Shown: one piece after another, positions 21,784-26,240 of the stretch
Layout of the letters: each line of letters starts with the position of its first letter
How positions within the stretch are numbered: position 1 is the first letter of the stretch
NCBI RefSeq assembly: GCF_019722725.1
Contig: NZ_CP077941.1
Location: 1,860,001-1,924,000 of the forward strand
Direction of reading: 5' to 3'
Length of the DNA stretch: 64,000 nt
DNA from: Vreelandella profundi
GTDB lineage: Bacteria; Pseudomonadota; Gammaproteobacteria; Pseudomonadales; Halomonadaceae
Notes under the pieces: model-generated
What the model saw: only the letters and a program-made list of their open reading frames with translations
What the model was told of the DNA's origin: nothing
Database searches by the model: none
Made by a program: the position numbers and the translations under genes

Positions 21784-22410
21784 TTAAACCCGCTGCTGCG
21801 TTGCCAAAATGCGCTCAACGGTCTCAACGATAACCTGCGTTTGTGGATCGACTTCAATATTGACCTGATCCCCAGGCGCCCGGTCTTGAAGCGTAGTGCG
21901 TGCCAGCGTTTCAGGAATTAAATTAACGCTAAACTCAACGCCAGTTTCCGTTTGGCGCACATCACCTATCGTCAAGCTAATGCCATCGACACCGATATAG
22001 CCTTTCTCGAATACGAAGCGGCCAAGCCTTTCGGGCAGAGAAAACCACAGGCGACGGTTGTTAGGTGCCTCTTCGATCGCCACCACGTCTGCCATAGAAA
22101 TAATATGACCCGACATCGAGTGCCCGCCTATTTCATCGCCAAAGCGCGCCGCGCGCTCTATATTGATGCACTGCCCTGGCGTGACGGCACCAAGATTGGT
22201 CAACCGCAGCGTTTCGCGCATTAAATCAAAGCTTACGTTATCGCCCTCGATCGACGTTACCGTCAAACACACCCCGTTATGGGACACCGATGCGCCGATC
22301 TCAAGGCCCGCTCGCATTGAGAGAGGCATTTCAATTACGTGTACGCGAAACTCATCAAGCTCACGCACTGCTACAACCTTCGCAACCCCTTGCACAATGC
22401 CGGTAAACAT
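21784..22410 (-). CDS. ribE: Riboflavin synthase alpha subunit
   Basis: A 208-aa enzyme that dismutates two molecules of 6,7-dimethyl-8-ribityllumazine to riboflavin. It starts with the invariant MFTGIVQG and has two tandem lumazine-binding repeats, each with a GxSVxxNGVCLTV or GVDGISLTI type core. The length is standard. It is monocistronic here. I looked for an FMN riboswitch upstream and did not find its conserved sequence. Confidence 0.95.
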   Translation of the reverse strand: MFTGIVQGVAKVVAVRELDEFRVHVIEMPLSMRAGLEIGASVSHNGVCLTVTSIEGDNVSFDLMRETLRLTNLGAVTPGQCINIERAARFGDEIGGHSMSGHIISMADVVAIEEAPNNRRLWFSLPERLGRFVFEKGYIGVDGISLTIGDVRQTETGVEFSVNLIPETLARTTLQDRAPGDQVNIEVDPQTQVIVETVERILATQQRV

Positions 22411-22665: not shown

Positions 22666-22694
22666 TTGACAGGCCATGTCGGCATATTTAAACT
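22666..22694 (+). promoter_or_regulatory. Sigma-70 promoter for metNIQ leader
   Basis: TTGACA (22666-22671), a 17-bp spacer and TAAACT (22689-22694) form a good sigma-70 promoter. Transcription should start near 22701, about 215 bases upstream of metN. Confidence 0.65.
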
Positions 22695-22700
22695 TTGGTC

Positions 22701-22843
22701 GCAAATTTAATGACGCCGATTTGTACCCATATTGCGGGCGTCCACCCATACTTTGGCCGGGCTTAGCCACTGTTTAGGTGAAGTGCAGCTAATAAGGGTG
22801 TGTCCAGCGCTGATGGCCACCCAAGAGGGTGGCTTTTTTATTT
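22701..22843 (+). ncRNA. Candidate regulatory leader RNA of metNIQ, ending in terminator
   Basis: The promoter at 22666-22694 and the terminator at 22816-22843 define a transcript of about 140 nt with no convincing coding content, upstream of a methionine transport operon. A CCACCC at about 22741 is the same as the 5' arm of the terminator stem, and GGGTG at about 22797 could pair with either, so alternative foldings are possible. No SAM riboswitch core I know is recognisable. It could be a riboswitch-like attenuator, an sRNA, or an ordinary leader. Confidence 0.4.
22816..22843 (+). terminator. Intrinsic terminator upstream of metN
   Basis: GCCACCC-AAGA-GGGTGGC is followed by TTTTTTATTTT on the plus strand. 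No plus-strand gene lies upstream for more than 600 bp, so it must act on the metN leader transcript. metN starts 73 bp further on. Confidence 0.85.
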
Positions 22844-22915
22844 TCAGCCCTACCCTTGGTCACTTGAAATTTGCACCCCCGCACCCGTCTTCGGCCTACC
22901 GTTAAGGCAGACGCT

Positions 22916-23989
22916 ATGATTGAACTTAGCAACGTCAGTAAAACCTACTTCAGTAACACCTCTGTCGGCAAAAGAAAGGGCAACGACAAAAACGCTGTCC
23001 ATGCACTCAAAAACGCCAGCCTCAGCGTCCCCAAAGGCACTATCCATGGCGTGATTGGACTTTCCGGCGCGGGCAAGTCCACGCTGATTCGCTGCGTCAA
23101 CCTGCTTGAGCGGCCCACGAGCGGCAGCGTTACGGTAGACGGTCAAGAAATGACGCGCCTGAGCAATGCAGAGCTTAATCGGGCACGCCACCGAATTGGA
23201 ATGATCTTTCAGCATTTCAATTTGCTCACCACGCGTACGGTCTTCGACAACGTCGCGCTTCCCCTTGAGCTAATGGGCCAAAAACGTCACGCCGTGCGTG
23301 AGCGCGTTATTTCGCTGCTGGAAATGGTGGGCCTAGCGGACAAAGCCAATCAATACCCGGCCCAGCTTTCTGGCGGGCAAAAACAACGCGTGGCCATTGC
23401 TCGCGCGCTGGCCAGCAAGCCGCAGATTCTGCTTTGCGATGAAGCAACTTCAGCGCTTGATCCACAAACCACCAGCTCAATTCTGGAGCTGCTGCGTGAT
23501 ATTAATCGTCAGCTGGGCATTACCATTCTACTGATTACTCACGAGATGGAGGTGGTGAAATCAATTTGCCATCGAGTCAGCCTGATTTCAGACGGGGAAC
23601 TGGTTGAAGACGCAGAAGTGGGCGACTTTTTCACCGCGCCGCGCACACAGCTGGGCCGAGAGTTTCTCAATGATTTTCTGCAGCTAACGCCGCCTAAAGA
23701 GCTGATTGAGCGGCTTATGGACGCGCCCGGCAACAATACTCACCCCGTCGTCCGGCTCACCTTTTCGGGCGATGCGGTCTCAACGCCACTCATTTCACGC
23801 CTTGCCCGTGAGTGCGGTGTCGACGTCAGCATTTTGCAGGCGAAAGTAGAATCTATTCAGGAACGCACCCTAGGCTTAATGATTGCAGAGCTATTAGGCA
23901 CGCCGGCGCAGACGCAGCAGGCCATGACGTATCTTGAATCTCATCAACTGCAGGTAGAGGTACTTGGCCATGTCCAGCGCAATGATTGA
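22916..23989 (+). CDS. metN: Methionine ABC transporter ATP-binding protein
   Basis: A 357-aa ATPase. It has Walker A GLSGAGKST, signature LSGGQKQRVAIARAL and Walker B ILLCDEATSALD. The C-terminal 90 residues form the NIL/ACT-type domain that binds methionine and inhibits the E. coli transporter when methionine is plentiful. The frame is open from a TTG at 22871, but the ATG at 22916 gives the normal N terminus MIELSNVSKTY, with AAGG about 8 bases upstream. It overlaps metI. A terminated leader lies upstream. Confidence 0.95.
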   Translation: MIELSNVSKTYFSNTSVGKRKGNDKNAVHALKNASLSVPKGTIHGVIGLSGAGKSTLIRCVNLLERPTSGSVTVDGQEMTRLSNAELNRARHRIGMIFQHFNLLTTRTVFDNVALPLELMGQKRHAVRERVISLLEMVGLADKANQYPAQLSGGQKQRVAIARALASKPQILLCDEATSALDPQTTSSILELLRDINRQLGITILLITHEMEVVKSICHRVSLISDGELVEDAEVGDFFTAPRTQLGREFLNDFLQLTPPKELIERLMDAPGNNTHPVVRLTFSGDAVSTPLISRLARECGVDVSILQAKVESIQERTLGLMIAELLGTPAQTQQAMTYLESHQLQVEVLGHVQRND

Positions 23990-24623
23990 TCTTATTTTAC
24001 AAGCCACGCTGGACACTCTTTATATGGTGGCCGTATCAGGACTGATTTCGACCCTGGTTGGTCTGCCGCTGGGCGTATTGCTATACGTTACGCGCCCTCG
24101 CCAAATATTAGCCAAGCCCGTGCTAAACCAAGCGCTCAGTCTCATTACTAACATTGGCCGCTCAATTCCTTTTATCATTTTGATGGTAGCCATCATTCCT
24201 TTTACGCGGATGCTCGTCGGCACGTCGATTGGCATCAATGCCGCGTCGGTACCGCTAACGATTGCTGCCATTCCGTTTATTGCGCGACTGGTTGAAGCGG
24301 CGCTCAATGAGCTTTCACCGGGACTCATTGAAGCAGCACAGGCGATGGGCGCCACCCCTTGGCAAATCATTTGCAAAGTGCTGATTCCAGAGGCTCGCGG
24401 CGGCATCATGACGGGCTTAACAATTACCGTCGTGACGCTGGTCAGCTACTCGGCCATGGCAGGCGCAGTCGGCGGCGGCGGGCTAGGCGATTTAGGCATT
24501 CGTTATGGTTATAACCGCTTCAATCCGACCATTATGCTCATTACGGTCGTGATCTTGGTCGTCATGGTGCAGGGCTTCCAGAGTCTGGGCGACTACCTGG
24601 TTCGCAAAAGTGATCGTAAATAG
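23970..24623 (+). CDS. metI: Methionine ABC transporter permease
   Basis: A 217-aa inner-membrane protein with about five transmembrane segments. The EAA loop, which contacts MetN, is EAAQAMGATPWQIICKVLIP. GGLGDLGIRYGYNRF near the C terminus is diagnostic of MetI. The start ATG at 23970 overlaps metN by 20 bp; an ATG at 23982 is also possible. Translation is probably coupled to metN. Confidence 0.94.
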   Translation: MSSAMIDLILQATLDTLYMVAVSGLISTLVGLPLGVLLYVTRPRQILAKPVLNQALSLITNIGRSIPFIILMVAIIPFTRMLVGTSIGINAASVPLTIAAIPFIARLVEAALNELSPGLIEAAQAMGATPWQIICKVLIPEARGGIMTGLTITVVTLVSYSAMAGAVGGGGLGDLGIRYGYNRFNPTIMLITVVILVVMVQGFQSLGDYLVRKSDRK

Positions 24624-24720
24624 TTAGTCACCTGCCTCTTTATGCCAAAAACGAATTAGACACACGCTTCTTATTCCCGCATCATTGCACCATTATGTAC
24701 AACGTGATTGGAGAAATGCC

Positions 24721-25512
24721 ATGCAAAAGCTCATTATCGGTAGCCTGACAGCCCTAGCCCTTGCGGTTAATGTCGCCAACGCAGAGACACGCAGCATCAA
24801 AATGGGCACCGTCGCCGGCCCTGAAACAGAAGTAATGGAAGTCGCGGCCCGCATCGCTAAAGAAGAATACGACCTTGATGTCGAAATCATTGAGTTTACT
24901 GACTTCGTCACACCTAACGTTGCCCTCGCGGACGGCAGCTTAGATGCTAACGCCTACCAGCACGAACCCTACCTAGACACCATGATTAACGACCGCGGTT
25001 ACGAGCTCGCGGTGGCTGGCTACACCTTCGTTTATCCGATTGGCGCTTACTCGGAGAAGTACGACAGCATTGATGATCTGCCTGACGGCGCACAAATTGC
25101 CCTACCCAACGATCCGACCAACGAGGGTCGTGCGTTGATCTTGATGCACAACGAAGGCCTGATCACCCTTAACGATCCTGAATTCCTTGAAGCAACGCCT
25201 ATCGATATTGCTGAAAATCCGCGCAACTTCCGCTTCCGTGAAATTGAAGCGGCTCAGCTGCCGCGTGTACTGCCCGATGTCGACATGGCGTTCATCAATA
25301 ACACCTTTGCACAGCCGGCGGGCTTAAGCCTTGACGATGCGTTGATTAAAGAAGGCCCTGAGTCGCCTTACGTCAATCTGATCGCCGTGCGTGCGGGTGA
25401 CGAAGAGCGCGAAGAAATCCGCCAACTGGTCGATGCCTATCAGCGTGACGAAGTCATTGAAAAAGCGGAAGAGCTATTCAAAGGCGCGGCCGTCCCAGGC
25501 TGGACCAAGTAA
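24721..25512 (+). CDS. metQ: Methionine-binding periplasmic protein
   Basis: A 263-aa solute-binding protein of the NlpA family, with LDANAYQHEPYLD and FINNTFAQPAGL typical of MetQ. It has a cleavable signal peptide (MQKLIIGSLTALALAVNVANA) and no lipobox Cys, so it should be a soluble periplasmic protein rather than a lipoprotein as in E. coli. The ATG at 24721 has GGAG 9 bases upstream. It is the last gene of metNIQ. Confidence 0.94.
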   Translation: MQKLIIGSLTALALAVNVANAETRSIKMGTVAGPETEVMEVAARIAKEEYDLDVEIIEFTDFVTPNVALADGSLDANAYQHEPYLDTMINDRGYELAVAGYTFVYPIGAYSEKYDSIDDLPDGAQIALPNDPTNEGRALILMHNEGLITLNDPEFLEATPIDIAENPRNFRFREIEAAQLPRVLPDVDMAFINNTFAQPAGLSLDDALIKEGPESPYVNLIAVRAGDEEREEIRQLVDAYQRDEVIEKAEELFKGAAVPGWTK

Positions 25513-25626: not shown

Positions 25627-26112
25627 ATGCAAACCACTGTCGATTTTTCGATGCTTAACCGCCAGCTGGAAGCGCTGCTGGACACACGGGACTGGCTAAC
25701 CAATAGCGCACAGACAGGCGCATTTATCGCTCAACAGCTTAGCGACTTAAACTGGGTGGGATTTTACCTTCAGCGTCAATCCGACGTACTCAGCCTGGGA
25801 CCCTTCCAAGGCCAGCCTGCATGCCATCCGATCCCTTTCAGCAAAGGTGTCTGCGGTGCCGCTGCGCGCCAGCAAACCACTCAGCGAGTCGACGACGTGC
25901 ATGCAGTTGAAGACCATATTGCCTGCGACACCAACTCACGCTCTGAGCTGGTGGTTCCTGTCGTGGCCAATGGCCACCTATGGGGCGTGCTTGATTTAGA
26001 CAGCCCACTGCACGGGCGTTTCACGCAGCAAGATCAGGCTGGCATTGAAGCACTGGTTGCCACCTTTATTCAGCAAACTGATTTACCCAATTTCATCGCG
26101 AAAGCTAACTAG
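25627..26112 (+). CDS. msrC: Free methionine-(R)-sulfoxide reductase (GAF domain)
   Basis: A 161-aa single-GAF-domain enzyme. Cys66, Cys76 and Cys100 have the same 10- and 24-residue spacing as Cys84, Cys94 and Cys118 of E. coli fRMsr (YebR/MsrC). The surrounding HPIPFSKGVCG and RSELVVPV also fit. It reduces free methionine-R-sulfoxide using thioredoxin. Its position directly after metNIQ suggests that imported methionine or its sulfoxide is repaired by this enzyme. The start has an AAGGA site (taaggaagccaaATG). Confidence 0.94.
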   Translation: MQTTVDFSMLNRQLEALLDTRDWLTNSAQTGAFIAQQLSDLNWVGFYLQRQSDVLSLGPFQGQPACHPIPFSKGVCGAAARQQTTQRVDDVHAVEDHIACDTNSRSELVVPVVANGHLWGVLDLDSPLHGRFTQQDQAGIEALVATFIQQTDLPNFIAKAN

Positions 26113-26163: not shown

Positions 26164-26240
26164 TGGTAGGACCAGGCGGATTTGAACCGCCGACCTCCAC
26201 GATGTCAACGTGGCGCTCTAACCAACTGAGCTATGGTCCT
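26164..26240 (-). tRNA. tRNA-Val(GAC)
   Basis: A 77-nt cloverleaf on the minus strand. The acceptor stem pairs AGGACCA with TGGTCCT. The D-arm is AGCTCAGTTGGTTAGAGC. The anticodon stem CCACG/CGTGG encloses TTGACAT with anticodon GAC. The T-arm is GGCGG-TTCAAAT-CCGCC. CCA is encoded at the 3' end. It reads valine GUC/GUU codons. Confidence 0.96.

What the first reader, a model, noticed from the sequence alone, without database searches (positions are those of the whole stretch)
22666..22915. Terminated leader RNA upstream of metNIQ: candidate methionine-related riboregulator
A clean promoter and a clean terminator define a transcript of about 140 nt with no evident coding role, and it can only precede metNIQ. 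The repeated CCACCC and the GGGTG segment allow alternative pairing with the terminator arms. I do not recognise a known SAM, SAH or T-box element. A premature terminator before a methionine transporter is the usual layout of a riboswitch or attenuator.
Basis: partly seen in the sequence, partly recalled or inferred. Interest (0 to 1): 0.7.

Follow-up and report, generated by a model that had tools for sequence, protein, structure and literature searches.

The report
SAM-II-type riboswitch before methionine importer
A short, prematurely ended RNA in front of the methionine-uptake genes of a salt-loving bacterium looks like a disguised form of a known sensor for S-adenosylmethionine, and in one sister genus the same RNA has been kept after losing its gene, which hints at a second job.

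Summary
In detail: a promoter (22666-22694), a conserved RNA and an intrinsic terminator (22815-22839) precede metNIQ. BLAST finds the RNA in 80 of 82 genomes of the genus, each time directly upstream of metN; a model finds it in 160 of 201 of the family. No Rfam SAM model matches the window copy, but relatives without its variable hairpin match SAM-II (47.8 and 36.9 bits, cut-off 36), and family-trained models land on SAM-II elements elsewhere in the class. It is a SAM-II-type aptamer with an extra covarying hairpin (P3; 8 of 8 pairs with two-sided changes). Most likely SAM stabilises the pseudoknot, blocks the antiterminator and shuts off metNIQ. In one sister genus rut genes separate RNA and metN, yet the RNA is intact in 5 of 9 genomes read, 0.83-0.97 identical where ribE third codon positions are 0.51-0.60 (one near-identical pair left out): a sign of a role apart from metN. 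SAM binding, termination control and any trans role are untested; the antiterminator and P2 tests were inconclusive.

The parts
22666..22694 (+). promoter, -35 TTGACA and -10 TAAACT, 17-nt spacer
   Evidence: consensus scan; recurs upstream of the RNA in the leaders shown; start site itself inferred
22701..22839 (+). predicted terminated leader RNA, about 139 nt
   Evidence: promoter plus terminator; 5' end inferred
22712..22742 (+). aptamer hairpin: P1 22712-22717 with 22737-22742, loop GAUUUGUACCCAUAUUGCG holding the 5' strand of P2
   Evidence: P1 99.7% paired over 59 family sequences, 2 of 6 pairs with changes on both sides; corresponds to RF00521 in hairpin-less relatives
22726..22728 (+). 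5' strand of pseudoknot P2 (CCC; can extend to UACCC 22724-22728)
   Evidence: CCC/GGG 98.9% paired but 2 of 3 pairs never vary; the window row is offset by one extra base
22743..22780 (+). P3, extra variable hairpin between P1 and the conserved AAGUGCAGCUAAA segment
   Evidence: 8 of 8 modelled pairs with two-sided changes, 85.5% paired; absent in several genera
22781..22795 (+). conserved aptamer segment AAGUGCAGCUAAUAA; the window has AAUAA where 100 of 109 distinct aptamer strings have AAAA or AAAC
22796..22804 (+). GGGUG(U)GUC: 3' strand of P2 (GGG) and 5' strand of the proposed antiterminator
   Evidence: 8 pairs to the terminator arm, 9 of 1000 shuffles as good in the window
22815..22839 (+). 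intrinsic terminator, stem 22815-22822 with 22827-22834, T run 22834-22839
   Evidence: seen in most family leaders read
22916..25512 (+). metN (22916-23989), metI (from about 23970), metQ (from about 24721)
   Evidence: NCBIfam: MetI 263.9 bits (cut-off 212); MetQ/NlpA family 278.7 (228.85); MetN TIGR02314 472.8, best hit but under its 499.7 cut-off
21784..22410 (-). ribE, divergent neighbour, not part of the switch
   Evidence: NCBIfam riboflavin synthase alpha 283.3 bits, cut-off 180

Best explanation
It is a cis-acting OFF switch of the SAM-II type with a transcription-termination platform. RNA polymerase starts near 22701 and makes P1, then the variable hairpin P3, then the AAGUGCAGCUAA segment. 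When S-adenosylmethionine is plentiful it is held in the H-type pseudoknot, with the P1 loop CCC paired to GGG at 22796-22798. GGGUG(U)GUC is then unavailable, the terminator 22815-22839 folds, and metNIQ is not transcribed. When SAM is scarce, GGGUG(U)GUC pairs with the terminator arm GGCCACCC (antiterminator), and polymerase reads on into metNIQ to import methionine. Shown: homology to SAM-II, P1 and P3 covariation, the terminator as a predicted fold, and the position before metN. Inferred: SAM as ligand (from class membership), P2 in this family, the direction of the switch, the antiterminator and the start site.
For: Hairpin-less relatives in front of metN match RF00521: L139 47.8 and L135 36.9 bits (cut-off 36), L142 29.6, L191 27.8, L143 25.4, L190 23.3, L189 23.1. 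The bridge to the hairpin-bearing form is direct: model R1, trained on 35 hairpin-bearing sequences of the window's genus only, finds L135 at 3.7e-18, L139 at 1.4e-14, L142 at 1.7e-13 and L143 at 2.0e-13. R1 also finds the SAM-II place in loci of other families: 29 of 48 loci at E <= 1, 15 of them at E <= 0.01 (13 distinct places); among the 30 loci that had been picked by RF00521 alone these are 13 and 5. Model R2, trained on 59 family sequences including the hairpin-less ones, matched 180 of 369 genomes of the class at E <= 0.01, two of them of the family itself and about 4 expected by chance. RF00521 matched 117 of the same 369 at E <= 0.001, 30 over the cut-off, and 0 of 14 controls. In 24 of those 30 genomes the listed R2 place overlaps the RF00521 place; the other 6 have R2 matches whose places were not listed. 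Downstream genes there read as metZ/metY, metX, metK and metN (named by eye). Covariation score 0.320 against 0.107 in shuffles, 0 of 500. metN follows the RNA in 80 of 80 genus loci, also in the 5 where ribE was not found in the fetched stretch, and in the 43 further distinct family loci read outside genus g4. Where the platform or the 3' half is gone, metN still follows what is left (L146-L148, L150, L151; L176, L177). Antiterminator in the window: 8 pairs, 9 of 1000 shuffles as good. Over 152 family rows, which repeat some genomes, own pairs average -10.8 kcal/mol against -5.3 and -6.3 for the two family-by-class mixtures and -5.4 for shuffled segments.
Against: The window copy matches no SAM model even in a 151-nt search at E up to 10, and the 7 hairpin-bearing relatives scanned gave none either. 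P2 hardly varies in the family, and a crude class-wide test found no locus-specific P2 pairing (958 of 2000 permutations as good). Antiterminator-like pairings are at or near chance in most other species tested: terminator-less L147 37, L151 213, L148 278, L146 320, L191 379, L189 419, L190 478 of 1000 shuffles; terminator-bearing L073 114, L079 117, L135 198, L142 298, L075 329, L139 506, L138 633 (L136 40, L144 4). Among class loci own segment-arm pairs are no better than cross pairs (-7.51 against -7.52). The antiterminator hairpin folds at -10.6 kcal/mol, no better than many shuffles (28 of 200 as good) and weaker than the terminator at -15.1, so it would have to act kinetically. In genus g4 the RNA persists without metN directly behind it. 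The window has AAUAA in a segment that is AAAA or AAAC in 100 of 109 strings, which may weaken binding here.
Confidence: 0.88

Rival explanations
1. The terminated RNA is chiefly a trans-acting small RNA, perhaps SAM-responsive, and its place before metN is secondary.
For: In genus g4 rut-type genes separate RNA and metN, yet promoter, P1, GCUAAA segment and terminator stay intact in 5 of 9 genomes read, at 0.83-0.93 identity for the 70-nt 3' part between the non-close pairs where ribE third positions are 0.51-0.60. The 3' segment GGGTGTGTCCAGCGTTGATGG is kept in most hairpin-bearing, terminator-bearing members listed. Sinorhizobium SAM-II leaders release stable sRNAs whose trans role is untested (PMC9373788, abstract and passages).
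Against: metN adjacency in the other loci read. The RNA has decayed in 4 of the 9 detached cases. Several species keep the 5' half and metN but have lost the terminator. No target was searched for.
Confidence: 0.2
2. A SAM-II-derived leader whose ligand or affinity has changed in this species (AAUAA in the aptamer).
For: The window and its 91%-identical relative L002 alone have U as the third base after GCU among the leaders seen. In the related SAM-V structure A50, the third base after the adenine-pairing U47, contacts the aminoacyl group of SAM (PMC6061858, passages; the mapping to this RNA is mine).
Against: If U22793 is an inserted, bulged base, the rest is the usual UAAAAGGG. P1, terminator and promoter are intact.
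Confidence: 0.2
3. A plain attenuator or constitutive terminator without ligand sensing.
For: Terminator more stable than the antiterminator; P2 unsupported by covariation.
Against: Homology to SAM-II and retention of the aptamer blocks across the family.
Confidence: 0.06
4. A T-box, SAM-I, SAH or leader-peptide element.
For: Methionine gene downstream; weak Phe_leader hit through the terminator (E 0.34).
Against: No such match at gathering, and only that sub-threshold Phe_leader line at E up to 10.
Confidence: 0.01

Closest known systems
SAM-II riboswitch (SAM_alpha, Rfam RF00521)
   Same: P1 hairpin with GAUUU at its start and UUGC(G) near its end, GCUAAA segment, C-rich loop able to pair with GGG, promoter just upstream, terminator downstream, methionine gene (PMC1273637 passages)
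   Different: extra hairpin P3 of variable length between P1 and the GCUAAA segment; stands before metNIQ; the window copy is invisible to RF00521; AAUAA in the window
SAM-V riboswitch
   Same: SAM-II-like core; has a helix called P3, which SAM-II lacks (PMC6061858 passages)
   Different: translational, found in marine alpha-proteobacteria and Bacteroidetes; no match listed for the window by Rfam at E up to 10; whether its P3 sits at the same place was not checked
SAM-II long loops (RF01726)
   Same: an expansion of the SAM-II collection (PMC2864571, table row and passage)
   Different: listed for Bacteroidetes and marine samples; no match listed for the window or 14 relatives
metXZ element of beta-proteobacteria (Leyn 2014, PMC4239095)
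   Same: pseudoknot, alternative fold, terminator, methionine genes (passages)
   Different: its sequence sits in a figure and supplement I could not read; whether it is the same SAM-II-like RNA that I see before metX/metZ is a lead only
Sinorhizobium meliloti metZ/metA SAM-II leaders releasing sRNAs RZ and RA
   Same: SAM-II aptamer plus terminator giving a stable short RNA (abstract and passages)
   Different: alpha-proteobacterial, different genes, still attached to their gene

Membership tests
SAM-II riboswitch (class) | single stem P1 enclosing a loop | tested here: met
   99.7% paired, two-sided changes at 2 of 6 pairs over 59 sequences
SAM-II riboswitch (class) | pseudoknot P2 between the P1 loop and a downstream strand | tested here: inconclusive
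   CCC/GGG complementary in nearly all rows but hardly varying; class-wide test negative
SAM-II riboswitch (class) | conserved core nucleotides GAUUU, UUGC, GCUAAA | tested here: met
   invariant or nearly so in A2; the window deviates at the third A
SAM-II riboswitch (class) | homology to accepted members | tested here: met
   relatives L139 and L135 over the RF00521 cut-off and found by genus-only model R1; R2 lands on RF00521 places in 24 of 30 over-cut-off genomes; R1 finds 13 of 30 RF00521-picked loci at E <= 1, 5 at E <= 0.01
SAM-II riboswitch (class) | binds SAM and discriminates against related compounds | not testable with these tools
   needs in-line probing or ITC
Rfam RF00521 as an operational model | window copy reaches 36 bits | tested here: not met
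   no match at gathering or E up to 10; RF00521 gave no match in G000
SAM-II long loops RF01726 / SAM-V | match to the Rfam model | tested here: not met
   no match listed
metXZ element (Leyn 2014) | six conserved sequence regions | not testable with these tools
   regions shown only in a figure and supplement, not held
riboswitch with transcription-termination platform | intrinsic terminator after the aptamer plus a mutually exclusive antiterminator | tested here: inconclusive
   terminator met as a fold; antiterminator 9 of 1000 shuffles in the window but near chance in most other species tested

The most novel reading that the evidence does not exclude
In one genus of the family an orphan SAM-II riboswitch has outlived its gene. 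The unit of promoter, SAM-II aptamer and terminator, cut off from metNIQ by rut-type pyrimidine-degradation genes, is kept under selection as a stand-alone SAM-responsive small RNA, acting in trans or by read-through antisense to the convergent permease gene. The metN-linked copies, including this window's, may then be dual-function: switch and sRNA.
Probability: 0.3. Interest if true: 0.75.

Novelty: new variant of a known kind. Interest (0 to 1): 0.45.

Why it matters
It gives the Halomonadaceae a likely SAM-sensing control of methionine uptake that the standard RNA library misses in this copy, apparently because of an inserted hairpin. SAM-II in Gammaproteobacteria is not new in itself: older papers mention it there (PMC2258182; PMC2704228; passages). 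But a 2014 survey of about 200 proteobacterial genomes, 12 of them in the group 'Oceanospirillales and various gamma-proteobacteria', reported SAM_alpha only in Rhizobiales and Rhodobacterales (PMC4239095), while here 117 of 369 genomes of the class match RF00521 at E <= 0.001, 30 of them over its cut-off. The detached but conserved copies make the open question of whether terminated SAM-II leaders act in trans testable in organisms where the cis target is no longer adjacent.

Tried and rejected
Chance or assembly oddity: rejected by conservation in 80 of 82 genus genomes. Known Rfam leader or sRNA: none at gathering; the sub-threshold lines (RefA9, Phe_leader, DUF3800-I, HCV_5BSL1, Collinsella-1, MicA and others) are judged chance, several resting on the terminator hairpin. 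RNAalifold's own structure for A1 paired P1's 5' strand with GCGUU downstream; those pairs hardly vary, so it was not adopted, though it may be a ligand-free alternative; R1 was nevertheless built with it. Model R1 in the order: 7 genomes outside the family reach E 0.01 (best 2.8e-4), none beside a metN recognised by tblastn; about three expected by chance. Second R1 matches per genome have E 1e-4 or worse and were not followed. The class-wide P2 test failed. The class-wide antiterminator comparison gave no own-versus-cross difference (-7.51 against -7.52 kcal/mol, 32 loci), partly because the arm finder cuts long arms; only the family set stands out.

Genomes without the RNA, or with a broken one. 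In the genus BLAST missed G051 (66% complete) and G044; G044 keeps promoter, a GCUAAA piece and a weakened terminator but has lost P1. Of the 41 of 201 family genomes without an R1 match, 15 were among the 27 searched for metI and read by eye: G118 has lost the 3' half and keeps metN; in G117 I recognise no RNA; G096, G116 and G097 have divergent hairpin-less aptamers before metN; G095 and G115 have metN without it; G083 and G121 have no leader of this kind; G098 has metN-like genes without it; G085, G104 and G108 gave no metI match; G123 only a weak metI-like one; G084 has metI, but the RNA region was not readable. G217 (R1 match only at background score elsewhere) has lost the 3' half of the aptamer and the terminator before metN. 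The other 26 were not examined. Of the 109 aptamer strings, 3 are artefacts of the text pattern and were kept in the denominator. No search for trans targets was made.

Printed record: five searches for Halomonas-, gamma- or beta-type SAM-II and orphan copies listed no paper whose title or abstract start describes this RNA; one search listed none at all. From these I opened passages of PMC4239095, PMC13414033 (only unrelated mentions), PMC2704228, PMC1273637 and PMC2258182; the other listed papers were not opened. Searches were broader; from them I opened passages of PMC2864571, PMC9373788, PMC5352136 and PMC6061858. No paper was read whole. The library holds only open-licence papers.

Full report
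What is there. Between ribE (minus strand, starts 22410) and metN (plus strand, starts 22916) lie a promoter (TTGACA 22666, TAAACT 22689-22694), an RNA of about 139 nt and an intrinsic terminator (GGCCACCC-AAGA-GGGTGGCT then T run, ending 22839). The terminator folds at -15.1 kcal/mol with 0 of 200 shuffles as good. The genes behind it are metN, metI and metQ (MetN is the best hit at 472.8 bits, under that model's cut-off of 499.7; MetI and the MetQ/NlpA family are over theirs).

Conservation. BLAST found the leader in 80 of 82 genomes of the genus. All 80 lie directly upstream of metN on its strand; in 5 ribE is not found in the fetched stretch, in some because the contig ends. 78 distinct leaders were aligned and 35 non-redundant cores modelled. 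Model R1 matched 160 of 201 genomes of the family in 18 of 24 genera (the list includes matches as weak as E 0.005) and nothing convincing elsewhere in the order. Outside the genus and outside genus g4 I read 43 distinct loci; in all of them metN follows the RNA or what is left of it. Contig lengths equate several genomes of the window's genus with Vreelandella/Halomonas records there (for example G011, G019, G003 and G005), so the window is most likely Vreelandella (formerly Halomonas).

What it is. The core reads G-R-CGCC-GAUUUG-n-nCCC-nnn-UUGCG-GGCG-Y-C, a variable hairpin, AAGUGCAGCUAAA, AGGGUG. The window copy matches no SAM family in Rfam. But several genera lack the variable hairpin. 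Of 14 relatives scanned, the 7 hairpin-less ones give SAM_alpha (SAM-II) lines: L139 47.8 and L135 36.9 bits, over the cut-off of 36; L142 29.6, L191 27.8, L143 25.4, L190 23.3 and L189 23.1 below it. The other 7, which carry the hairpin, give none at E up to 1. Genus-only model R1 recognises hairpin-less L135 (3.7e-18), L139 (1.4e-14), L142 (1.7e-13) and L143 (2.0e-13), which ties the two forms together. In the reverse direction, model R2, built from 59 sequences of this family, hairpin-less ones included, matched 180 of 369 genomes of the class at E <= 0.01 (2 of the 180 are of the family, about 4 expected by chance). RF00521 matched 117 of the same 369 at E <= 0.001, 30 over its cut-off, and none of 14 controls. 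In 24 of those 30 genomes the listed R2 and RF00521 places overlap; for 6 the R2 place was not listed. R1, run on the 48 class loci fetched, finds the SAM-II place in 29 at E <= 1, 15 at E <= 0.01 (13 distinct places); of the 30 picked by RF00521 alone these are 13 and 5. Downstream genes read by eye are mostly metZ/metY, with metX, metK and metN as well. The class is Gammaproteobacteria by inference; the tool does not name it. L211 and L225, outside the family, also carry a hairpin at the P3 site, so the insertion is not unique to this family.

Structure test. On A2 the named structure pairs 94.1% of cells, with a covariation score of 0.320 against 0.107 in shuffles (0 of 500) and at most 0.096 when slid. 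P1 has two-sided changes at 2 of 6 pairs. P3 has them at 8 of 8 pairs with 85.5% paired. P2 (CCC/GGG) is 98.9% paired but nearly constant, so it is not tested. The window row is offset there by an extra base. A crude class-wide test of P2 was negative.

Mechanism. GGGUG(U)GUC (22796-22804) can pair with the whole terminator arm GGCCACCC (22815-22822). This uses the same GGG as P2, giving a simple exclusive choice between pseudoknot plus terminator (SAM present) and antiterminator (SAM absent). For the window 9 of 1000 dinucleotide shuffles do as well. Most other species tested are at or near chance, terminator-less and terminator-bearing alike. Over 152 family rows (some genomes repeated) the mean duplex energy is -10.8 kcal/mol against -5.4 for shuffled segments. 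Folded alone the antiterminator stretch gives a slightly different 9-pair hairpin of the same strands at -10.6 kcal/mol, with 28 of 200 shuffles as good, weaker than the terminator at -15.1, so a kinetic switch is implied. Many class relatives show CUAAAG...CUUUAG complementarity between aptamer tail and terminator arm (by eye). [quoted passage not shown] passages). Ligand and direction are inferred from the class.

The window copy itself. After GCU it has AAUAA. Of 109 distinct aptamer strings, 91 have AAAA, 9 AAAC, 2 AAA and 2 AAAAA; the window and L002 alone have a U; 3 strings are pattern artefacts. The SAM-V paper reports that A50 contacts the aminoacyl group of SAM and U47 pairs with its adenine; by my mapping the base changed here is the A50 equivalent, unless U22793 is a bulged insertion. 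So this species may carry a weakened or retuned copy.

The orphan copies. In genus g4, metI lies about 8 kb from the RNA match on the same strand in 8 genomes and about 2.2 kb away in G153. In G189 the stretch between holds an NCS1 permease, RutA and other genes I read as rut-type, mostly on the opposite strand (RutA is over its cut-off, the other rut names are recalled). The permease gene is found beside the RNA in 8 of the 9 genomes whose intergenic region was read. I judge the RNA intact in G189, G169, G162, G192 and G122 (the last with an insert of roughly 150 nt inside P3) and decayed in G107, G183, G133 and G153. Among intact copies other than the close pair G162/G192, the P1 hairpin is 0.88-0.97 identical and the 70-nt GCUAAA-to-terminator part 0.83-0.93, where third positions of the neighbouring ribE are 0.51-0.60. 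If the insertion is ancestral, as the shared permease suggests, the RNA has been under selection without metN behind it. Decay in three lineages of the ribE tree shows that this is not universal. Candidate reasons are a trans-acting sRNA or SAM-controlled read-through antisense to the permease gene; neither was tested.

Limits. I read a subset of the family hits. No experiment, no target search and no tree-based rate test was made.

Noticed in passing
window 25627-26112 (+): A GAF-domain protein directly behind metQ (Pfam GAF 48.1 bits); by recall it resembles free methionine-(R)-sulfoxide reductase, which would fit a methionine operon. No NCBIfam hit at 1e-10.
   Followed up: partly
L205 922-7944 and loci L206, L259, L261-L265: Rut-type pyrimidine degradation genes between the RNA and metN in genus g4, leaving a conserved detached SAM-II unit in 5 of 9 genomes read.
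   Followed up: partly
L262 (G122), within P3: Roughly 150 nt inserted inside the P3 hairpin while the rest of the RNA stays conserved.
   Followed up: no
L146, L147, L148, L150, L151: Species that keep the aptamer half and metN but have lost the terminator; GGG of P2 can still pair with a downstream C-rich stretch, though mostly not above chance.
   Followed up: partly
L211, L225: SAM-II-like leaders outside the family, before metZ-like genes, with a hairpin at the same P3 site.
   Followed up: no
G758, G870 (class genomes): Five R2 matches in each of two genomes; RF00521 gives 5 in G758 and 1 in G870. Several SAM-II copies per genome are possible.
   Followed up: no
class loci before metX/metZ: The metXZ element described as new in beta-proteobacteria (PMC4239095) may be the same SAM-II-like RNA; its sequence could not be read.
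   Followed up: no
window 26167-26240 (-): tRNA gene, 73.2 bits to RF00005, the only Rfam gathering match in the window.
   Followed up: no
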